Source of the DNA: Streptacidiphilus neutrinimicus | Lineage (GTDB): Bacteria; Actinomycetota; Actinomycetes; Streptomycetales; Streptomycetaceae | Direction of reading: 5' to 3' | DNA: 64,000 nt | NCBI RefSeq assembly: GCF_000787815.1 | Contig: NZ_BBPO01000004.1 | Location: 4,475-68,474, forward strand | Shown here: in pieces, positions 16,239 through 25,046 of the stretch | Numbering within the stretch: the stretch's first letter is position 1 | Layout: each line of letters opens with the position of its first letter | Program-made: the position numbers and the translations under genes | The notes under the pieces: generated by a model | Databases searched by the model: none | What the model was told of the DNA's origin: nothing | Seen by the model: only the letters and a program-made list of their open reading frames with translations

Positions 16239-16769
16239 TCAGCCTCGGCGGCCGGGGATCGTGGTGGCGGTGGGGGCGGGGGTGGGCCGGAGGAGCACGC
16301 ACTCGTGGCTGCTGCGCTTGGTGACCCGTCCGTTGGGCCCGATGACGACCACGGTCACGCCTGACGCCGTGGTGTCCGGGTCGGCCAGGCGTGCCGCGGC
16401 GGCCGTGCAGATCAGTTGGCGGAGTGCGATCGACGGCAGGGGTCTGGTGCCCGCGGGCAGTTGCAACGTCACCTCGGCGCCGTTCACCGTGACCGCGGGA
16501 GCGGCGACGCCGCTCAGAGCGGTCGTCATGCCGAGTCGCCTCTCCCGCATGTCGGGGCCTGAGAGCAGGAGTTTGACGGCCACGCCCGTGTCGGTCGGGG
16601 TCGCCATCGGAGAGCTGGTGGGGACGAGGTGGCCGTCGATGACGAAGTAGAGGACCGGGCCCACGGGCGTGACACCGGTGGCCGGGTCGCCGGACTGGAT
16701 CACGCCGGTCGCGGGGATTCCGCAGCCGGACAGCAGCAGGACTGCGGCGAGCAGTATCACTCGCTTCAT
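16239..16769 (-). CDS. secreted lipoprotein, GerMN-like, partner of the sensor kinase
   Basis: 176 residues. A typical lipoprotein signal ends at the lipobox LSGC with Cys16, so the protein is expected outside the membrane as a lipid-anchored factor. The mature part (GPVLYFVIDGHLVPT, then VAVKLLLSGPD) fits the GerMN-type fold seen in sporulation lipoproteins and LpqB. Its ATG overlaps the kinase stop as ATGA, so it is translationally coupled and probably modulates the kinase's sensing. Comparable lipoproteins accompany the AfsQ and Cse two-component systems. Confidence 0.8.
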   Translation of the reverse strand: MKRVILLAAVLLLSGCGIPATGVIQSGDPATGVTPVGPVLYFVIDGHLVPTSSPMATPTDTGVAVKLLLSGPDMRERRLGMTTALSGVAAPAVTVNGAEVTLQLPAGTRPLPSIALRQLICTAAAARLADPDTTASGVTVVVIGPNGRVTKRSSHECVLLRPTPAPTATTIPGRRG

Positions 16770-18427
16770 GCTCGAGCCTCCTCATCGGGTTCCCATCCCG
16801 GTTCCGACCCCGGTTCCGACTCCGACTCCGACCCCGGGTTCGTCTCCGGCAGCGGGAGCTCGACGGTCAGCAGCGCACCTCCGCCCGGGTGGTTGGCCGC
16901 CCGGATCGTGCCGCCGTGCAGGTGCACGTTCTCGGCGGTGATCGCGAGGCCAAGCCCGCTGCCCTCGGTCCGGGTGCGGGCGGTGTCGGACTTGTAGAAG
17001 CGGTCGAAGATGTGCGGCAGGACCGTCTCCGAGATGCCCGGCCCGCTGTCCAGGACCTCGATCACCGCCCACCGTGTCGTTCCGTCCGCGGCGGGCGGCC
17101 GCCGGAGCTCGCGGAGCGTGAGCTGGACCGGAGGCGCGCCGTGGCGCAGCGCGTTCCCGACCAGGTTCGCGACGACCACGTCGAGGCGGCGCGGGTCGAC
17201 CCGGCCCCGCAGCGCCGGGGGCTCTGGCAGGCAGGTGGCCACGCGGTCCTGCCAGGCCCGGGCGCAGAGGGTGCGCCGGACCGACTCGACCAGGTCGATC
17301 ACGTCCAGATGGAGCGCGGCGGTGCCGGCGTCGAAGCGGGAGACCTCCATGAGGTCCTCCACCAGCCGGGCCAGGTTGGCGGTCTCCTGGCTGATGAGCC
17401 GTACGGCGATGGCGGTGTCGGGGTCCAGGCCGACGGCGTCCTCGTCGAGGACGTCGGTGACGACGGACATGGCCGCCAGCGGTGTGCGCAGTTCGTGGGA
17501 GACGTCCGCGGCGAAGCGGCGAGCCTTGGCCTCCATGCGGCGCAGTTCGGCGATGGATTCCTCCAGCGCGGCGGCGGTCTCGTTGAAGCTGTGGGACAGC
17601 TCGGCGAGCTCGTCCGAGCCGTGGACGGCGAGGCGGGTGTCGAGCCGGCCCTCGGCGATACGCCGGGTGGCGTGGCGCAGTTCCCGCACCGGACGCAGCA
17701 CGCCCCGGGCGGCGAGCAGGGCGAGCAGCACCGCCAGGACCAGCGCGGGCACGGTGGCCCGCTCCGCGGCCGTGACCAGGGCCTGGACGTAGGCCAGTTC
17801 GCTGTCCTGGGGCGCCACCACGAAGACCGTGAGGCCGGTGGCCGTGCGCCCGTTGTCCGCCGAGGCGAACATGACCGGCATGCCGACCACGAGGCAGGAG
17901 CGGCCGCCGTCGGCGGTGACACGCTGGAAGACGGTCGCCGTGTGGGTGGTCGCCTCCGTGCGCAGGTCGCGCGTCAACTCGGAGAACCGGTCCTGCGGTG
18001 TCGAGGTCGCGCTCAGGCCGTGGTAGGTCACCAGCACCCGCCACTGCTGGGAGGGGTCGGCCATGGCGACGGAGGTCGCGAACCCGTCCAGGTCCCCTTG
18101 GCGGGGCGGGAAGGCGAGGTCGGGGGCGAGGTTGTCGACCCGGTCGCGCAGGAGCCGGATGACGGTGTCCTGGCTCTGCTGGAGGATGCCGGTGCGCGCC
18201 TCACGGAACGTCAAAGCACCCGTGGAGAGCGCGGCGGCCACGGCGACCAGCCCGAACGCGGCCACCAGCCGGACGCGCAGGCCGCCCGGCAGCGACGGAC
18301 GGGGCAGGCGTCGGCGCCGGGGCGAGGTGTGCGGAGGCGAGGCGTGCGGAGCAGACGTGTGCCGGGGCGAGGCGTGCGGAGGAGACGTGTGCGAAGGCGA
18401 GGTACGAGAGGCCAAGGGTTCGGTCAT
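16766..18427 (-). CDS. HAMP-containing sensor histidine kinase (AfsQ2/CseC-like)
   Basis: 553 residues. A His/Ser/Pro-rich N-terminal tail is followed by TM1 (about 50-72), an extracytoplasmic sensor domain of about 150 residues, TM2 (about 225-245), HAMP, HisKA with VSHELRTPLAAM, and HATPase_c with N-box NLVGNALRHG and G-boxes DSGPGI and GSGLGLAI. The ATG overlaps the response-regulator stop as ATGA. It is the middle gene of regulator-kinase-lipoprotein, the arrangement of the afsQ and cse operons. The divergent penicillin-binding protein supports an envelope-stress role (inference). The tail encoding SEPGSEPGWEPDEE is a short DNA repeat of CCGACTCCGA-type units. Confidence 0.87.
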   Translation of the reverse strand: MTEPLASRTSPSHTSPPHASPRHTSAPHASPPHTSPRRRRLPRPSLPGGLRVRLVAAFGLVAVAAALSTGALTFREARTGILQQSQDTVIRLLRDRVDNLAPDLAFPPRQGDLDGFATSVAMADPSQQWRVLVTYHGLSATSTPQDRFSELTRDLRTEATTHTATVFQRVTADGGRSCLVVGMPVMFASADNGRTATGLTVFVVAPQDSELAYVQALVTAAERATVPALVLAVLLALLAARGVLRPVRELRHATRRIAEGRLDTRLAVHGSDELAELSHSFNETAAALEESIAELRRMEAKARRFAADVSHELRTPLAAMSVVTDVLDEDAVGLDPDTAIAVRLISQETANLARLVEDLMEVSRFDAGTAALHLDVIDLVESVRRTLCARAWQDRVATCLPEPPALRGRVDPRRLDVVVANLVGNALRHGAPPVQLTLRELRRPPAADGTTRWAVIEVLDSGPGISETVLPHIFDRFYKSDTARTRTEGSGLGLAITAENVHLHGGTIRAANHPGGGALLTVELPLPETNPGSESESEPGSEPGWEPDEEARA

Positions 18428-19125
18428 CGGGGCCGGGGGCTGTGGAACCGGTAGCCGAAGCCCCGGACGGTCTGGATGTAGCGCGGCTGCCGCGGCGGTT
18501 CGCCCATCTTGGTGCGCAGCCGTTTGACGCAGGCGTCCACCAGCCGTGCGTCGCCGTGGTAGCTGTGCTCCCAGACGGCCTCCAGCAACTGCTGGCGGCT
18601 GAACACCCGGTCTGGTGCGGCGGACAGGGTCAGCAGCAGCCGCAGTTCCGACGGGGCCAGCAGGAGGGGAGCGTCCCCGCGGGTGACGGTGAGTGCGGCC
18701 CGATCGATGCTCAGGTCGCCGTGCGTCTCGGCCGGGTGGGCCCGGCCACCGGGGGACGGCGTCGCCTCGGCCCGGCGCAGGACGGCGCGGATCCTGGCGT
18801 CCAGCACCCGGGCCTGGACGGGCTTGACCACGTAGTCGTCCGCTCCCGTCTCGAGGCCGAGCACGACGTCCACGTCGTCGCCCAACGCCGTCATGATGAT
18901 GATCGGAAGCTGACTGTCCGCGCGGATCTGGCGGCAGACCTCCAGCCCGGTCATCCCCGGCAGCATCAGGTCCAGCACCACGACGTCCGGCAGGAACGAC
19001 CGGAGTTGGTCCAGTCCCTCCTCCCCGGTCCTGGCCGGGGCGACCTCGTGCCCTTGGCGGCGCAGGGCCAAGCGGGCGCCTTCACGGACGGCGGGGTCGT
19101 CTTCGACGAGCAGGACACGGGACAT
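18424..19125 (-). CDS. OmpR-family response regulator (AfsQ1/CseB-like)
   Basis: 233 residues. Receiver domain with acidic pair EDD, phospho-acceptor Asp in VVVLDLMLPG (near residue 51), and conserved Thr/Lys (IIMTAL; DDYVVKP). The winged helix has typical LVDACVKRLRTK and TVRGFGYRF. The segment VQARVLDARIRAVLRR is characteristic of the AfsQ1/CseB group. I chose ATG 19125; a GTG at 19149 would add eight residues. It is translationally coupled to the kinase. It lies 324 bp from the divergent penicillin-binding protein gene. Confidence 0.87.
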   Translation of the reverse strand: MSRVLLVEDDPAVREGARLALRRQGHEVAPARTGEEGLDQLRSFLPDVVVLDLMLPGMTGLEVCRQIRADSQLPIIIMTALGDDVDVVLGLETGADDYVVKPVQARVLDARIRAVLRRAEATPSPGGRAHPAETHGDLSIDRAALTVTRGDAPLLLAPSELRLLLTLSAAPDRVFSRQQLLEAVWEHSYHGDARLVDACVKRLRTKMGEPPRQPRYIQTVRGFGYRFHSPRPR

Positions 19126-19449
19126 GCGCTCAGTATCGTCGGCGGCCACCGTCCCGCCCGAAGACTGTTACACGATGATCGCATAGGCCCGGCTGTTGCG
19201 ATTCGGTCATATTCCCGGCCGGTCGCGATCACATGGCCGAACCAGCCTGATCGTTCGTGAGCCCGGCGATCCGACGTCACCTCGGCGCGACGTCCGGCCA
19301 GGGCACCAGGGAGCCGGTGCGCCGGAGCACCGTGCTGAGGCCCGGTCCCGGGACGCCCTGACATCCCGAGCTCCCCCGGCGGCGCGGTCCCCCGCCCCGC
19401 CGCCGGGGGCCCGCCCCCAGGCCCATGGTTCGACCTGAAGGAGTTCCCG
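19126..19449. promoter_or_regulatory. 324-bp divergent promoter region, response regulator and penicillin-binding protein
   Basis: The part near the regulator (19165-19215) is locally AT-rich (ACTGTTACACGATGATC; ATTCGGTCATATTCC) and is the likely promoter zone. The part near the PBP gene is G/C-rich. No convincing hexamer pair or palindrome was assigned. The arrangement would let the regulator control both units. Confidence 0.35.
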
Positions 19450-21558
19450 TTGCCTGAGCGAATCGTGCGGCCTTCGCGCAAGAGTCGGCGTCAGCGCCGC
19501 GCGGCGGAACGGGGCGGCGCAGCTCCGCAGGAGCCGGCGCGCACCGGCGACCCCGAAGCTGGCCGCGCGCCCCGGATACGGCGGCGGAGGCGGCTGCGTC
19601 GCTGGCTGAAACGCCTGCTCGTGGCGCTCCTGTTTCTCTTCGGTGCGCTGGCCGGGCTCGTCTGGTACGCCTACGAGACCACCGCCATCCCCGCGCCGAA
19701 CCCGAGCAACCTGCAGCAGAGCAACGTCTACTACTGGTCCGACGGCACCGTGATGGCCACCCACGGTTCGGTGAACCGGGTCAACATCACCCTGGACCAG
19801 GTCCCGCTGCCGGTGCAGCGTGACTTCCTGGCCGCCGAGAACGCGGACTTCTACCACGACTCCGGCGTCGACCCCACGGGGATCGTGCGCTCACTGGTGA
19901 ACATGGTCCAGGGTCGCCAGCTGCAGTCCGGATCGACCATCACGCAGCAGTTCGTCAAGAACTCCTTTCTCAGCCAGCGCCCCACCATCGGGCGCAAGCT
20001 GCAGGAGCTGCTGATCGCGACGAAGATCGGAGACGTCTACTCCAAGCAGCAGATTCTCACCGGCTACCTGAACACCAGTTACTTCGGCCGCGACGCCTAC
20101 GGACTGGACGCGGCCGCCCGGGCGTACTACGGGGTGGACACCCGCACGCTGACGGTCTCGCAGGGTGCCTTCCTCGCCGCCACGGTCAACGAGCCCAGCC
20201 TCTACCAGAACATCGACTCGGACGCCCGCGCCCGGGTCAAGGCGGTGGCCCGCTGGCACTACGTCCTCGACAGGATGGTCAAGGACGGCTGGATGACCGC
20301 CGCGGAACGTGCCCGCTACCCCGACTCGGCCTTCCCCACTCCGCACCCGTGGGTCCGGGCGGCCCTGACCGGGCAGACCGGCTACCTCTACCAGCTCGCC
20401 ACCGACTACGCCCAGCAGCACGCGGGCATCACCGACCAGCAGCTCGCCCACGGCGGCTACCACATCTACACCACCTTCGACCGCACCCTCACCGAGGAGC
20501 TGGCGACCGCCGTCACCAAGGAGATGGCCTCCGCCGCCGACCCGAAGGACAGGAAGAACCTCTCGCTCCAGGCCGGTGCGGCCAGCGTCGATCCCACCAC
20601 GGGCCGCATCCTCGCCGTCTACGGAGGCCCGGGGTGGGACAAGGGGGCCTACAACGACATCGCCGACAGCGCCGGACTCCAGGCGGGGTCGACCTTCCAG
20701 CCCGTCGTGCTCGCCGCCGCCCTGGCGCACGGTGCGGTGCGCAGACCCGGAACCGCAGCCTCGGCCGTCAGCCCGGACAGCGTCTTCAACGGCAACAGCG
20801 ACATCGAGATCTACGGCGCGAACGGGTTCCCCCTCCGCAAGCCCGGCAAGAACGCCGGCCCGCTGTTGGAGCAGAACGACCGCTACGCCTCCTGGGGTGA
20901 CATCTCGCTCCGCTCGGCGATGCAGCACTCCGTGATCACGCCGTACGTCCAGCTCGGCGAGAACGTCGGCTACCCGGCCGTGAAGTCCACCGCCGAGGCA
21001 CTGGGCGCGCTCAGCGGCAGCCTCTCCTCGGACAGCGCCGACTTCTACGCGGGCTCCTCCACCATCAGCCCCGTCCGGCTGGCCTCCATGTATGGCACCT
21101 TCGCCGACCAGGGTCTGCACATCAACCCGTACTCGGTCACCCGGATCACCTACGACGGCCTTCCGGTGGGCGGCCTGACGCCCCCCACCCCGGTCCAGGC
21201 CATCCCACCTGCGATCTCCGGGCTCGTCAACAGCATCCTGGCGGAGGCCGCGACGAAGGACGGGACAGGCCGTCGCACCGCCCCCCTGCAGCGCTTCAAG
21301 GCGGGCAAGACCGGCACCGACGACCCGTACCACCCCGACTGGTTCGTCGGATACACCCGCCAACTCGCCACCGCCATAACGATGTTCGCCACCGACACGA
21401 TCCACCCCGGGCTCAGCCCGGTCGGCGCGGACGTCGGCAGCGACTTCCCGACCGAGGCCTGGACGGCGTTCACGGCACAAGCGCTCCAGGGCAAGCCCGA
21501 CCTCCCGTTCACCGTCGCTGCCACACCGACCCCGGAGCCCACGACTCCCCGTCCGTAG
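19450..21558 (+). CDS. class A penicillin-binding protein with degenerate transpeptidase motifs
   Basis: 702 residues from TTG 19450, preceded by AAGGAG at 7 nt; no better start exists. A basic cytosolic tail is followed by one TM helix (about 56-74). The GT51 glycosyltransferase domain has AAENADFYHDSG (catalytic Glu130) and SGSTITQQFVKN. The transpeptidase domain keeps KTGT (Lys620) but has STFQ (Ser414, Gln417) where family members have STFK, and SVI (494-496) where SxN is expected. Peptidoglycan polymerisation should work, while cross-linking and penicillin binding are probably lost or altered. A Thr/Pro tail ends the protein. It is divergent from an envelope-type two-component system. 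Confidence 0.88.
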   Translation: MPERIVRPSRKSRRQRRAAERGGAAPQEPARTGDPEAGRAPRIRRRRRLRRWLKRLLVALLFLFGALAGLVWYAYETTAIPAPNPSNLQQSNVYYWSDGTVMATHGSVNRVNITLDQVPLPVQRDFLAAENADFYHDSGVDPTGIVRSLVNMVQGRQLQSGSTITQQFVKNSFLSQRPTIGRKLQELLIATKIGDVYSKQQILTGYLNTSYFGRDAYGLDAAARAYYGVDTRTLTVSQGAFLAATVNEPSLYQNIDSDARARVKAVARWHYVLDRMVKDGWMTAAERARYPDSAFPTPHPWVRAALTGQTGYLYQLATDYAQQHAGITDQQLAHGGYHIYTTFDRTLTEELATAVTKEMASAADPKDRKNLSLQAGAASVDPTTGRILAVYGGPGWDKGAYNDIADSAGLQAGSTFQPVVLAAALAHGAVRRPGTAASAVSPDSVFNGNSDIEIYGANGFPLRKPGKNAGPLLEQNDRYASWGDISLRSAMQHSVITPYVQLGENVGYPAVKSTAEALGALSGSLSSDSADFYAGSSTISPVRLASMYGTFADQGLHINPYSVTRITYDGLPVGGLTPPTPVQAIPPAISGLVNSILAEAATKDGTGRRTAPLQRFKAGKTGTDDPYHPDWFVGYTRQLATAITMFATDTIHPGLSPVGADVGSDFPTEAWTAFTAQALQGKPDLPFTVAATPTPEPTTPRP

Positions 21559-21641: not shown

Positions 21642-22811
21642 TCACCCGACCGATGCCAGTCTTCTGCGCAGCGCGAGCGTGGCGAGCAACAGGAGCCCGG
21701 CCGCGTAGGCGGTGAGGATCACGAGGTAGCCGAGGACGGCGTGCAGGCCCCCGTGGCGGGACAGCAGCTCCGTCCAGGAGTCGACGGCCCAGGACTGCGG
21801 CACGACGTGTCCGGCGGCCCGCAGCCAGGCGGGAACGATGGCGAGCGGCCACATGCAGCCGCCCAGCATGCCCAGCGTGATGCCGACCGCCGGGCCGATC
21901 GAGTGCACCTGCTCGGGGGTGCGGAACAGCGCTCCGGCGAGGAGTCCCGCTCCGGTCCCGACCAGGGCCCAGACCCCGACCAGCGCCAGCGCCGCGGCAG
22001 GTGCACCCCAGGAGACGCCGAACGCCAGCGCGCCGACGGAGACGATCAGCGCCGACTGCACCAGGGCGAGCGACAGATAGGCGAGCGTCTCGCCGAGTAC
22101 CAGGGTGCCCGCACCGACCGGCGCTGCCAGCGCGCGGCTGTAGACGCCGGACTGACGGTTCTGCACGATCGATGCCCCGTTGGAGACCGCGTTGATGAAG
22201 ACGAAGAGCACCAGCATCGTGGGCGTGCTGTAGCTGTAGCCGAGGGGAAGGTAGGAACTCTGGCCGTTCACCGTCCGCTGTGTGACGGATACCGAGGGCG
22301 TGGCGGCGGCGGTGCGGGCGGCGAGGCCCAGTCGGCTGTCGAAGGCGCCTCCGGTCTCGGCCACGGTGAAGCGCGCGGCCTGCACCCGCCCGGCGTGGTC
22401 GGCGACGGCCGACTCCACAGCGGCGACGGCGGCCTGGGCGTTGGTGGCCGAAGGCGCCACCAGGATGGGGAGGGTCACCGTCCCGGGGCCCGCCGCCTGC
22501 CGGTCCAGCGTCGCCGGGACGACTACGACAGCGTCGGTCTCGCTGCGGCGCAGCGCGGTCCGGGCAGTGGACTGGTCCGGGTAGACGTGGGTGCGCAGCG
22601 CGGGGTCGTCGGTCAGTGTGGTGACCAGGTCACGAGTGACCGGCCCGGCGTCCGCGGCCGCCACGACGCCGACTCGGAACTGGTCGAAGCCGCGGACGGT
22701 CACACCGATGACCACGATGATGGCGACGGGGAGCAGCACCATGAAGAACAGCGCGCCGCGGTCCCGCGCGATGCGGACCACTGTGGCCCGGGTGACTGCC
22801 AGGATCCTCAT
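21642..22811 (-). CDS. ABC-2 type exporter permease
   Basis: 389 residues. One N-terminal TM helix (LFFMVLLPVAIIVVIGVTV, 21-40) is followed by a long extracytoplasmic region of about 140 residues, then five TM helices (about 185-385), the ABC-2 membrane layout. The ATG overlaps the stop of the upstream permease (ATGA), and GAGGAGG precedes it. It is the third gene of ATPase-permease-permease, probably a heterodimeric exporter. Substrate unknown. Confidence 0.85.
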   Translation of the reverse strand: MRILAVTRATVVRIARDRGALFFMVLLPVAIIVVIGVTVRGFDQFRVGVVAAADAGPVTRDLVTTLTDDPALRTHVYPDQSTARTALRRSETDAVVVVPATLDRQAAGPGTVTLPILVAPSATNAQAAVAAVESAVADHAGRVQAARFTVAETGGAFDSRLGLAARTAAATPSVSVTQRTVNGQSSYLPLGYSYSTPTMLVLFVFINAVSNGASIVQNRQSGVYSRALAAPVGAGTLVLGETLAYLSLALVQSALIVSVGALAFGVSWGAPAAALALVGVWALVGTGAGLLAGALFRTPEQVHSIGPAVGITLGMLGGCMWPLAIVPAWLRAAGHVVPQSWAVDSWTELLSRHGGLHAVLGYLVILTAYAAGLLLLATLALRRRLASVG

Positions 22812-23986
22812 GGTGTCCTCCTCAGCCTGAACAGCACCGCGGCCACCAGCGCGACGACAGCGGAGCACGCCGCGATGCCGAGCAGAGGGTCACGGACGGC
22901 GGCGAGTCCGCTGACGCCCGTGCCGAGGTCGGTGAAGCCTCGCAGCGCCCAGCCGTTGGGCGTGAACAACGCCAGCCGACGCAGTGCCGCCGGTCCCGCC
23001 GAAGCGAAGACGAAGTTTCCCCCCAGCAGGACGAGCGCGAAGACCACGACCGAGGACAGCTGCTCGGCCTGACGTTCCGTTCGGGAGACCACGATGACCA
23101 GGGTGGTCAGGCAGACCACTGCGACGGACATCCCCACGCACAGGGCCGCCACCCCGAGCGGGTCGGCGTAGCGGGCGCCGAAGACGAAGTGCGCTGCGGT
23201 CAAAGTGGTGGCGAGGCCCGCGAGACTGTAGGCGAAGGTCGCCAGGGACTTGCCGAGAAGCACCGTGCCTCGTCCGAGCGGCGCCGCGGCGATGCGGTCC
23301 AAGGTCCCCTGGCGCTGCTCGCTGAAGTAGCCGCGAGCGGCGAAGCCGATGGTGAAGAGGACGAAGAACATCCCCATGCTGGGCCCGAAGTAGCTGACAC
23401 CCTTGAGGGCGTAGCCTGAGGCGTCGGCCGGCCGCGCCTGCACGGGCAGCCGCAGCTCGGCAGCCTGTGCTGAGAGCCTGGGCAGGTCGGCGGGCAGCGC
23501 GCCGGCGGTCAGGGCGGTGGCGACGGAGAGGCGGTCCGCGTTCACCTGGGCGACGAAGGAGGTGGCGACCGCGTTCGCCAGTTGGGCCTGCAGCGGGTAG
23601 TCCACGCTGCTGAGGACGGTCACCGGTTCGGGCCGCCCGCCCGCCACCGCCGCGGTGAAACCGGCGGGGATGACGATGCCCGCTTGCTCCGGGCCGTGTC
23701 GGACCGCCTGGGCCGCTTCCTCGGTGGCCGGGTAGCTGCGGACGCTGACGGTGTCGGCGAGCTGAGGGCTGCGCAGCGTCTGCAGCAGGCCCGCGGCGGC
23801 CGTGCCGTGGTCGAGGTCGACCACGGCCACCTTGGCGTGGAAGGCGGCCGTTCCGCTGAACGCCATGGACATCAGCGCGGTGATGACCACCGGCGCGAGA
23901 AAGACGATCACCCACGCGGAACGGTCCCGCAGGCGTTGCCGCAGGTCCTTGAGCGCGATCGCGAGTACCGGTCGCACAGCGCTCAC
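22808..23986 (-). CDS. ABC-2 type exporter permease
   Basis: 392 residues from GTG 23986, overlapping the ATPase stop as GTGA. It has the same layout as its downstream partner: N-terminal TM (about 25-44), a large extracytoplasmic domain, and a cluster of TM helices from residue 205 to the end. The two permeases are paralogous and probably pair in one transporter. Confidence 0.85.
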   Translation of the reverse strand: MSAVRPVLAIALKDLRQRLRDRSAWVIVFLAPVVITALMSMAFSGTAAFHAKVAVVDLDHGTAAAGLLQTLRSPQLADTVSVRSYPATEEAAQAVRHGPEQAGIVIPAGFTAAVAGGRPEPVTVLSSVDYPLQAQLANAVATSFVAQVNADRLSVATALTAGALPADLPRLSAQAAELRLPVQARPADASGYALKGVSYFGPSMGMFFVLFTIGFAARGYFSEQRQGTLDRIAAAPLGRGTVLLGKSLATFAYSLAGLATTLTAAHFVFGARYADPLGVAALCVGMSVAVVCLTTLVIVVSRTERQAEQLSSVVVFALVLLGGNFVFASAGPAALRRLALFTPNGWALRGFTDLGTGVSGLAAVRDPLLGIAACSAVVALVAAVLFRLRRTP

Positions 23987-24975
23987 TCCCGCAGCGCGGT
24001 GCCGGTCAGGTGGAGGAAGACCGCCTCCAGGTCGGGCTCGACGATCTCCACGCTCCGGATCTGCACCCGGTTGGCGTGGGCGAGGTCGAGCAGGCGCGGC
24101 AGGAGACTGCGCGCGTCGCGCACGACGGCGTGCACGGTTCCTTCGTCCGAGCGGTCGACGTCGGCGCCTTCGACCTCCGGCAGTGCGCGGCAGGCCTCGG
24201 CGTAGCGAGTGAGATCACCGGAGGCGACGAGTTGGACTTGGTCCTTCTCGGCCACCAGGGCGACGAGTTCGCGTGGGGTGCCCTCGGCGATCAGGCTGCC
24301 GTGGTCGATGATGCCGACGCGGTCGCAGAGGCGCTCCGCCTCCTCCATGTAGTGGGTGGTGTAGATGACGGCCATGCCCTGGTCGCCGAAGCGGCGCACG
24401 CTCTCCATGATCGCGTGGCGGCTCTGCGGATCGACTCCGACCGTCGGCTCGTCCAGAACGAGCAGCGTCGGAGAATGGACCAGCCCGGCCCCGATGTTGA
24501 GGCGCCGCCGCATTCCGCCGGAGAGCGAGTCCACCCGGTCCTCGCCCCTCGCGGTGAGGTCGATGAGTTCGAGGACCTCCTCGACCCGCCGTTCGAGCCG
24601 TCGCCGCGGGAGCCGGTAGAGGCGGCCGAAGAACAGCAGGTTCTCCCGCACCGTCAGGTCGGGGTAGAGAGCGACCTCCTGCGGCACGTAGCCGATCAGC
24701 CGCTTGGCCGGTCCCGGCGCCGCCCGCACCGGCAGTCCGGCCACGCGTACGGTTCCGCTGTCGGCTTCGAGCAGCCCACAGACGATCTTGATCGTCGTGG
24801 TCTTGCCGGCGCCGTTCGGTCCGAGGAGTCCGTAGGTCTCGCCCGGCGCGACGTCCAGACTGACGCCGTCCACGGCGGTGCGGCTTCCGAACCTGCGCAC
24901 CAGCTTCGAGCAGTCCAGCAGCGGCTCCGCATCCTGCTGCGGCCGGATCGTCTGCGCTGCCTGCGGCGTTGCCAT
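23983..24975 (-). CDS. ABC exporter ATP-binding protein
   Basis: 330 residues. Walker A GPNGAGKTT (near residue 48), Q-loop VPQEVALYPDLTV, signature LSGGMRRRL, Walker B LLVLDEPTVGVD and H-loop TTHYMEE are all intact. The C-terminal extension of about 90 residues is typical of DrrA-like drug or lipid exporters. ATG 24975 follows GGGAGGGTGG. Two copies of the GGGCCGnnCGGCCC box lie 36-71 bp upstream, so this exporter is a candidate member of the stress regulon centred on 31-35 kb. Confidence 0.88.
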   Translation of the reverse strand: MATPQAAQTIRPQQDAEPLLDCSKLVRRFGSRTAVDGVSLDVAPGETYGLLGPNGAGKTTTIKIVCGLLEADSGTVRVAGLPVRAAPGPAKRLIGYVPQEVALYPDLTVRENLLFFGRLYRLPRRRLERRVEEVLELIDLTARGEDRVDSLSGGMRRRLNIGAGLVHSPTLLVLDEPTVGVDPQSRHAIMESVRRFGDQGMAVIYTTHYMEEAERLCDRVGIIDHGSLIAEGTPRELVALVAEKDQVQLVASGDLTRYAEACRALPEVEGADVDRSDEGTVHAVVRDARSLLPRLLDLAHANRVQIRSVEIVEPDLEAVFLHLTGTALRE

Positions 24976-25010
24976 GGTTCCACCCTCCCGGCGGGGAGGG
25001 CCGAACCCTA

Positions 25011-25046
25011 GGGCCGTGCGGGCCACCCGGGCGGGCCGCCCGGCCC
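25011..25046. promoter_or_regulatory. tandem DevR-like boxes upstream of ABC exporter
   Basis: GGGCCGTGCGGGCC (25011-25024; 11 of 12 fixed positions of GGGCCGnnCGGCCC) and GGGCCGCCCGGCCC (25033-25046; 12 of 12) are 22 bp apart start to start. They lie 36 bp upstream of the exporter ATG, within the short gap after the USP gene. Confidence 0.65.

What the first reader, a model, noticed from the sequence alone, without database searches (positions are those of the whole stretch)
19450..21558. Class A PBP with lost SxxK lysine and SxN asparagine
The glycosyltransferase domain is intact, but the transpeptidase has Ser414-Thr-Phe-Gln417 in place of STFK, and Ser494-Val-Ile496 in place of SxN, while KTGT stays. 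The Lys is the general base for acylation, so this domain should be inactive or very weak. The gene is divergent from an envelope-type two-component system, so the protein may be a stress-induced glycan polymerase or a decoy.
Basis: partly seen in the sequence, partly recalled or inferred. Interest (0 to 1): 0.65.

Follow-up and report, generated by a model that had tools for sequence, protein, structure and literature searches.

The report
Wall-building enzyme with disabled cross-linking half
In this soil actinomycete (genus Streptacidiphilus) one cell-wall synthase keeps its sugar-chain-building half intact but has lost the catalytic lysine and another active-site residue of its penicillin-sensitive cross-linking half; two sister species share the change, and the same kind of loss has happened several times independently in related Streptomyces-family bacteria.

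Summary
The ORF at 19450-21558 (+) is a class A PBP with an intact GT51 domain. Its transpeptidase (TP) domain reads S414-TFQ, S494-VI and K620-TGT, so the SxxK lysine and SxN asparagine are missing.

It is not a sequencing error. Two other Streptacidiphilus species carry orthologues (90% and 87% identical) with STFQ and SVV/SVI, beside the same divergent response regulator-kinase-lipoprotein operon. The closest paralogue, in this genome and across the genus (about 47% identical), has STFK/SIN/KTGT, so the trio derives from an active-type ancestor.

The TP domain is not decaying: it diverges no faster than TP domains of intact PBPs at matched GT divergence.

Best reading: a glycan polymerase with a maintained, catalytically dead TP scaffold, insensitive to beta-lactams, possibly controlled by the neighbouring CseB/MtrA-like two-component system. 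Missing SxxK in Streptomyces class A PBPs was already reported (13 of 100; PMC6273383), so the kind is known but uncharacterised. The "decoy" idea is not supported.

The parts
19450..21558 (+). class A PBP, 702 aa, intact GT51 and catalytically degenerate transpeptidase
19744..20277 (+). GT51 glycosyltransferase domain (residues 99-276), all motifs intact
   Evidence: Pfam PF00912 E 1.9e-50; motifs
20566..21432 (+). transpeptidase domain (about residues 373-661)
   Evidence: PF00905 matches residues 475-639; alignment
20689..20700 (+). S414-T-F-Q417 in place of SxxK
   Evidence: sequence; alignment
20929..20937 (+). S494-V-I496 in place of SxN
   Evidence: sequence; alignment
21307..21318 (+). 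K620-T-G-T, retained third motif
   Evidence: sequence; alignment
18424..19149 (-). OmpR-type response regulator, CseB/MtrA-like, divergent from the PBP
   Evidence: Pfam; NCBIfam best CseB 262.7 bits against cut-off 350; best PDB match MtrA 2gwr
16766..18427 (-). sensor histidine kinase (HAMP-HisKA-HATPase), MtrB-like
   Evidence: NCBIfam MtrB 259.5 bits against cut-off 450
16239..16769 (-). small lipoprotein (SGC lipobox), start overlaps the kinase end, third gene of the operon
   Evidence: sequence; conserved at 80-82% in the two other species; no Pfam or NCBIfam match
19150..19449 (.). shared divergent intergenic region: conserved block beside the regulator, GC-rich hairpin (about 19374-19409) and AAGGAG ribosome-binding site before TTG
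   Evidence: three-species alignment; fold

Best explanation
It is a duplicated bifunctional class A PBP that became in effect a monofunctional peptidoglycan glycosyltransferase. The GT51 domain polymerises lipid II. The TP domain has lost the lysine that activates the nucleophile and the SxN asparagine that helps hold the substrate amide, so it should neither cross-link nor be acylated by beta-lactams. The TP fold is nevertheless kept under selection, most likely as a scaffold or peptide-binding platform for the GT or for partner synthases. Cross-linking of its strands would be done by the intact PBPs of the cell. Expression is probably tied to envelope status through the divergent CseB/MtrA-like regulator, giving extra beta-lactam-insensitive glycan polymerisation. 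Shown: sequence states, orthologues, ancestry, constraint, gene linkage, recurrence. Inferred: lack of TP activity, GT activity, scaffold role, regulation, physiological benefit.
For: GT51 intact: 37 of 38 near-invariant GT positions kept in the trio. STFQ and SVI/SVV in three species. Sister to a genus-wide STFK/SIN/KTGT paralogue, node support 100/95-96. TP not decaying: within-trio TP identity 87-89% against 88-89% expected from intact PBPs at the same GT identity; no gaps in the TP region, third codon positions lead the differences, pairwise omega below 1 by both methods. The own genome has four other class A PBPs with intact motifs where readable. RR-kinase-lipoprotein-PBP arrangement kept in all three species. 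The same outcome (GT kept, TP catalysis lost) arose repeatedly: about 5-6 losses on the GT tree, and a single origin rejected within the genus (AU p 0.008).
Against: No biochemistry or expression data. The nucleophile Ser414, Ser494 and the whole KTGT are still there, which a plain GT-only enzyme would not need. The three species are close, so invariance of Q417 within them carries limited weight. dS estimates are rough at 92% GC3. Control by the two-component system rests on linkage only, and the linkage is found in just three close species.
Confidence: 0.62

Rival explanations
1. The TP domain is a non-catalytic ligand-binding sensor: it binds stem peptides (or beta-lactams non-covalently) and regulates its own GT domain or signals to the adjacent kinase and lipoprotein.
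For: TP constraint equal to that of active enzymes, with Ser414, Ser494 and KTGT kept; tight linkage with a kinase and a lipoprotein; a kinase orthologue in another genus member (G013) lies within about 5 kb of a different TP-degenerate class A PBP.
Against: No interaction data; the G013 region is rearranged, carries a transposase-like gene and frameshifts, and the assembly is only 76% complete; other TP-degenerate PBPs sit beside an LCP gene or an ECF sigma factor, not beside this system.
Confidence: 0.15
2. The TP is still active, slowly or on another substrate, with another residue (for example K620 of KTGT or the trio-specific H493 next to Ser494) taking over as base.
For: Nucleophile Ser414, Ser494 and KTGT retained; H493 is found in all three orthologues and in none of the intact relatives aligned; normal TP constraint.
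Against: The SxxK lysine is required for acylation in characterised PBPs and serine beta-lactamases (established knowledge); SxN Asn is lost as well; no precedent located in the library.
Confidence: 0.11
3. A redundant paralogue on the way to becoming a pseudogene.
For: Loss of two catalytic residues and of the long C-terminal tail; other lineages (L052, L053, L054, L055) show truly eroded TP domains.
Against: Full-length ORF in three species, no gaps in the TP region, TP divergence as in active enzymes, conserved RBS and synteny.
Confidence: 0.08
4. Sequencing or assembly error.
For: K to Q needs only one base change (AAG to CAG).
Against: Two further assemblies from other species (NBRC 103184 and 103185) show the same Q417 and SVI/SVV.
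Confidence: 0.01

Closest known systems
Streptomyces class A PBPs lacking SxxK (13 of 100 in Ogawara 2016, PMC6273383)
   Same: class A PBPs of the same family with GT kept and the SxxK motif missing; noted at sequence level only
   Different: that list says SxN and KTG are mostly conserved; here SxN is lost as well, the gene is linked to a two-component system, and the genus was not covered; whether any listed gene is an orthologue could not be tested
Bifunctional class A PBP (genus-wide STFK/SIN/KTGT paralogue; PBP1A family)
   Same: domain order TM-GT51-linker-TP; 47% identical; direct sister in the tree
   Different: lysine and Asn of the TP active site lost, C-terminal low-complexity tail lost
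Monofunctional glycosyltransferase (MtgA/SgtB type)
   Same: expected activity: glycan polymerisation without cross-linking
   Different: keeps a full-length TP domain under selection; belongs to class A PBPs by descent
S. aureus PBP2 GT working with PBP2a (functional analogue, from general knowledge)
   Same: a GT of a class A PBP supplies strands while another enzyme cross-links
   Different: there the TP is active but blocked by drug; here it is inactivated by sequence

Membership tests
Class A PBP | N-terminal membrane anchor and GT51 domain with its motifs | tested here: met
   PF00912 E 1.9e-50; motifs complete; hydrophobic stretch about 53-75
Class A PBP | C-terminal PBP transpeptidase domain by homology | tested here: met
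   PF00905 68.7 bits against cut-off 22.1, residues 475-639; alignment to intact paralogues
Class A PBP | SxxK, SxN and KTG catalytic motifs | tested here: not met
   STFQ, SVI, KTGT: two of three lost
Class A PBP | covalent penicillin binding | not testable with these tools
   needs protein
PBP1A family TIGR02074 | curated NCBIfam score cut-off | tested here: not met
   334 bits against 508.75
Monofunctional GT (TIGR02070, MtgA) | curated NCBIfam score cut-off; no TP domain | tested here: not met
   115.6 bits against 182.65; TP domain present
CseBC or MtrAB two-component system (neighbour genes) | equivalog cut-offs of NCBIfam | tested here: not met
   RR 262.7 against 350 for CseB; kinase 259.5 against 450 for MtrB: related, not orthologous by this test
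Ogawara SxxK-less Streptomyces class A PBPs | orthology to a listed locus (SAV_4423 etc.) | not tested
   those genomes were not identifiable in the collections; larger genome searches failed

The most novel reading that the evidence does not exclude
Streptomycetaceae repeatedly turn duplicated bifunctional PBPs into beta-lactam-blind glycan polymerases with a preserved pseudo-transpeptidase, spread on chromosomes and linear plasmids and sometimes placed beside envelope-stress regulators. They would form an unrecognised functional class in which the dead TP acts as a regulatory or peptide-sensing module.
Probability: 0.3. Interest if true: 0.7.

Novelty: new variant of a known kind. Interest (0 to 1): 0.45.

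Why it matters
If true, it gives natural glycosyltransferase-only class A PBPs with the TP fold still attached and selected. They would separate what the TP domain does structurally from what it does catalytically, and would suggest a way for cells to keep polymerising wall under beta-lactams in a family rich in antibiotic producers. The recurrence (about 5-6 losses in one family, a KAG-type lineage shared by Streptacidiphilus and Streptomyces plasmids, convergent loss of the C-terminal tail) makes it testable by comparison. SxxK loss itself was already listed in a 2016 review, so the single gene is only mildly surprising.

Tried and rejected
1. Sequencing error: rejected by two other species' assemblies. 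2. Covalent decoy for beta-lactams: rejected on mechanism, since an enzyme that cannot be acylated cannot trap drug. 3. Structure model from a 9-row alignment: mean pLDDT 59, most of the TP below 60; discarded and no fold search was made. 4. Searches of 60 relatives and of 25-400 family genomes failed on the server, so the family-wide rate is unmeasured. 5. One origin for all TP-degenerate PBPs of the genus: rejected, AU p 0.008. 6. L053 (G013) as an orthologue of the window gene: rejected, AU p 0.007; that assembly is 76% complete and frameshifted, and L048 from the same genome is counted as a frameshift artefact, not a loss. 7. Rfam found no RNA element around the gene. 8. Literature: no functional study of a naturally TP-dead class A PBP located in the held library; the SxxK-less loci searched for are cited in one paper only.

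Full report
WHAT IS THERE. The window lies in a Streptacidiphilus genome (G000, 8.4 Mb); the closest named relatives are S. anmyonensis and S. melanogenes. The ORF 19450-21558 (+) encodes 702 aa: a basic N-terminus, one hydrophobic stretch, GT51 (Pfam 1.9e-50) and a PBP transpeptidase domain. The TP motifs are GSTFQ (413-417), SVI (494-496) and KTGT (620-623). The TTG start has an AAGGAG 6 nt upstream, conserved in the three species.

CONSERVED, NOT AN ERROR. Orthologues in S. anmyonensis (L013, 90%) and S. melanogenes (L014, 87%) carry STFQ and SVV/SVI with KTGT. They are the only orthologues found among 14 genus genomes. The nearest other relatives are a genus-wide paralogue at about 47% identity, in this genome on contig C168, with STFK/SIN/KTGT; the trio is its sister in GT-domain trees with support 100/95-96. 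So the trio derives from a duplicated active-type PBP that lost its catalytic residues.

THE TP DOMAIN IS KEPT. Of 42 TP positions at least 90% conserved in intact relatives, the trio keeps 35. Seven differ in at least one member: V380, K417, N496, A590, V601, S629 and T636. The GT domain keeps 37 of 38. Within-trio TP identity is 89 and 87%; intact PBP pairs at the same GT identity show 89±4 and 88±5. Against the paralogue, TP identity is 45-46% where 48±5-6 is expected. The TP region has no gaps, third codon positions lead the differences, and omega is below 1 by both methods, though dS is unreliable at 92% GC3. By contrast, TP domains of L052, L053, L054 and L055 are shortened or diverge faster. 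The window gene is therefore a pseudo-transpeptidase under ordinary constraint, not a decaying one.

A RECURRENT PATTERN. A census of class A PBPs in the genus found one TP-degenerate, GT-intact gene in each of 8 of 14 genomes: the trio; G008 (L051 8657-10820, TAFT/SIN/KAGT); G006 (L052); G013 (L053); G001 and G011 (L054, L055: SxxK and KTG replaced, SxN stretch missing). The roughly 60 others examined are intact in every motif that could be read, apart from two cut or frameshifted genes (L048, L126); a few G013 fragments were not examined. Streptomyces linear plasmids carry more: SAFK/SDH/(K or R)TGP in L087, L088, L092, and SAFT, STFL or SAFL with KAGT in L089, L090, L093; L091 is intact. 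On a GT-domain tree of 59 sequences the state changes at least 7 times, 6 without the L048 artefact, and 5 if two weakly resolved groups are joined. A single origin within the genus is rejected (AU p 0.008). The G008 gene and three plasmid genes form one well supported clade (100/98), so one TP-dead lineage spans two genera. The segment from TP position 640 to the end is 44-75 residues in most degenerate proteins (L053 is cut short at 1) and 112-208 in the others; L054 and L055 are exceptions.

NEIGHBOURHOOD. Divergent from the PBP, 300 bp away, is an operon of response regulator, histidine kinase and small lipoprotein with overlapping stops and starts. It is kept in the same arrangement in the two other species. 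The regulator scores best against CseB then MtrA, the kinase against MtrB, all below equivalog cut-offs, so it is an envelope-type paralogue and not CseBC or MtrAB themselves. The rest of the genus has a kinase only 43-46% identical. In G013 a closer kinase (64% over the kinase core, against 51-56% for the genus paralogues) lies about 5 kb from the TP-degenerate L053; this is suggestive, but the region is rearranged and frameshifted. L055's PBP lies downstream of an ECF sigma factor gene, and L051's gene is divergent from an LCP gene. In S. [quoted passage not shown]

MECHANISM. From established PBP chemistry, loss of the SxxK lysine removes the base that activates the serine, and loss of the SxN Asn weakens substrate positioning. 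The domain should not acylate. The most likely activity is GT-only glycan polymerisation, with the cell's other PBPs doing the cross-linking; this genome has four other class A PBPs. Because the TP keeps Ser414, Ser494 and KTGT under normal constraint, it probably serves as a scaffold or a peptide-binding module; a sensor role and residual activity (H493 is special to the trio) remain open. The decoy idea fails because covalent trapping needs acylation.

KNOWN OR NEW. Ogawara's 2016 review reports 13 of 100 Streptomyces class A PBPs without SxxK, with SxN and KTG mostly conserved, and takes them as able to function (PMC6273383). No other paper in the library names the six of those loci that were searched for, and no functional study was found. 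The kind is thus known at sequence level. What this work adds is the double loss here, the active-type ancestry, the maintained TP constraint, the linkage to a two-component system, the repeated origin and the shared loss of the tail.

LIMITS. No structure of use, no family-wide rate (searches failed), small orthologue set, and no biochemical or expression evidence.

Noticed in passing
L089 2824-4815, L090 2821-4806, L093, L051 8657-10820: A clade of class A PBPs with K417 replaced by T or L and KTG replaced by KAG, on Streptomyces linear plasmids and a Streptacidiphilus chromosome: a TP-dead lineage that spans two genera.
   Followed up: partly
L087, L088, L092: Plasmid-borne class A PBPs with ASAFK, SDH and (K/R)TGP motifs, a separate degenerate group; the L092 copy has an in-frame stop and is annotated as two genes.
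   Followed up: partly
L055 6140-10043: A TP-eroded class A PBP downstream of an ECF sigma factor gene and an unannotated 326-aa gene on the same strand.
   Followed up: partly
class A PBP alignment, after residue 640: Loss of the long low-complexity C-terminal tail goes with loss of TP motifs in most degenerate lineages (44-75 residues against 112-208).
   Followed up: partly
window 19374-19409: GC-rich hairpin about 40-75 bp before the PBP start, present in all three species (z -2.3 for 19360-19455); no Rfam match.
   Followed up: partly
window 21642-25026: An ABC-2 type exporter (two permeases and an ATPase) between the PBP and a universal stress protein gene; not detected in the corresponding stretch of S. 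melanogenes, so probably a local insertion or loss.
   Followed up: partly
L053 6447-12924: In G013 an RR-kinase-lipoprotein set like the window's lies within about 5 kb of an independently degenerate class A PBP, with a transposase-like gene between them.
   Followed up: partly
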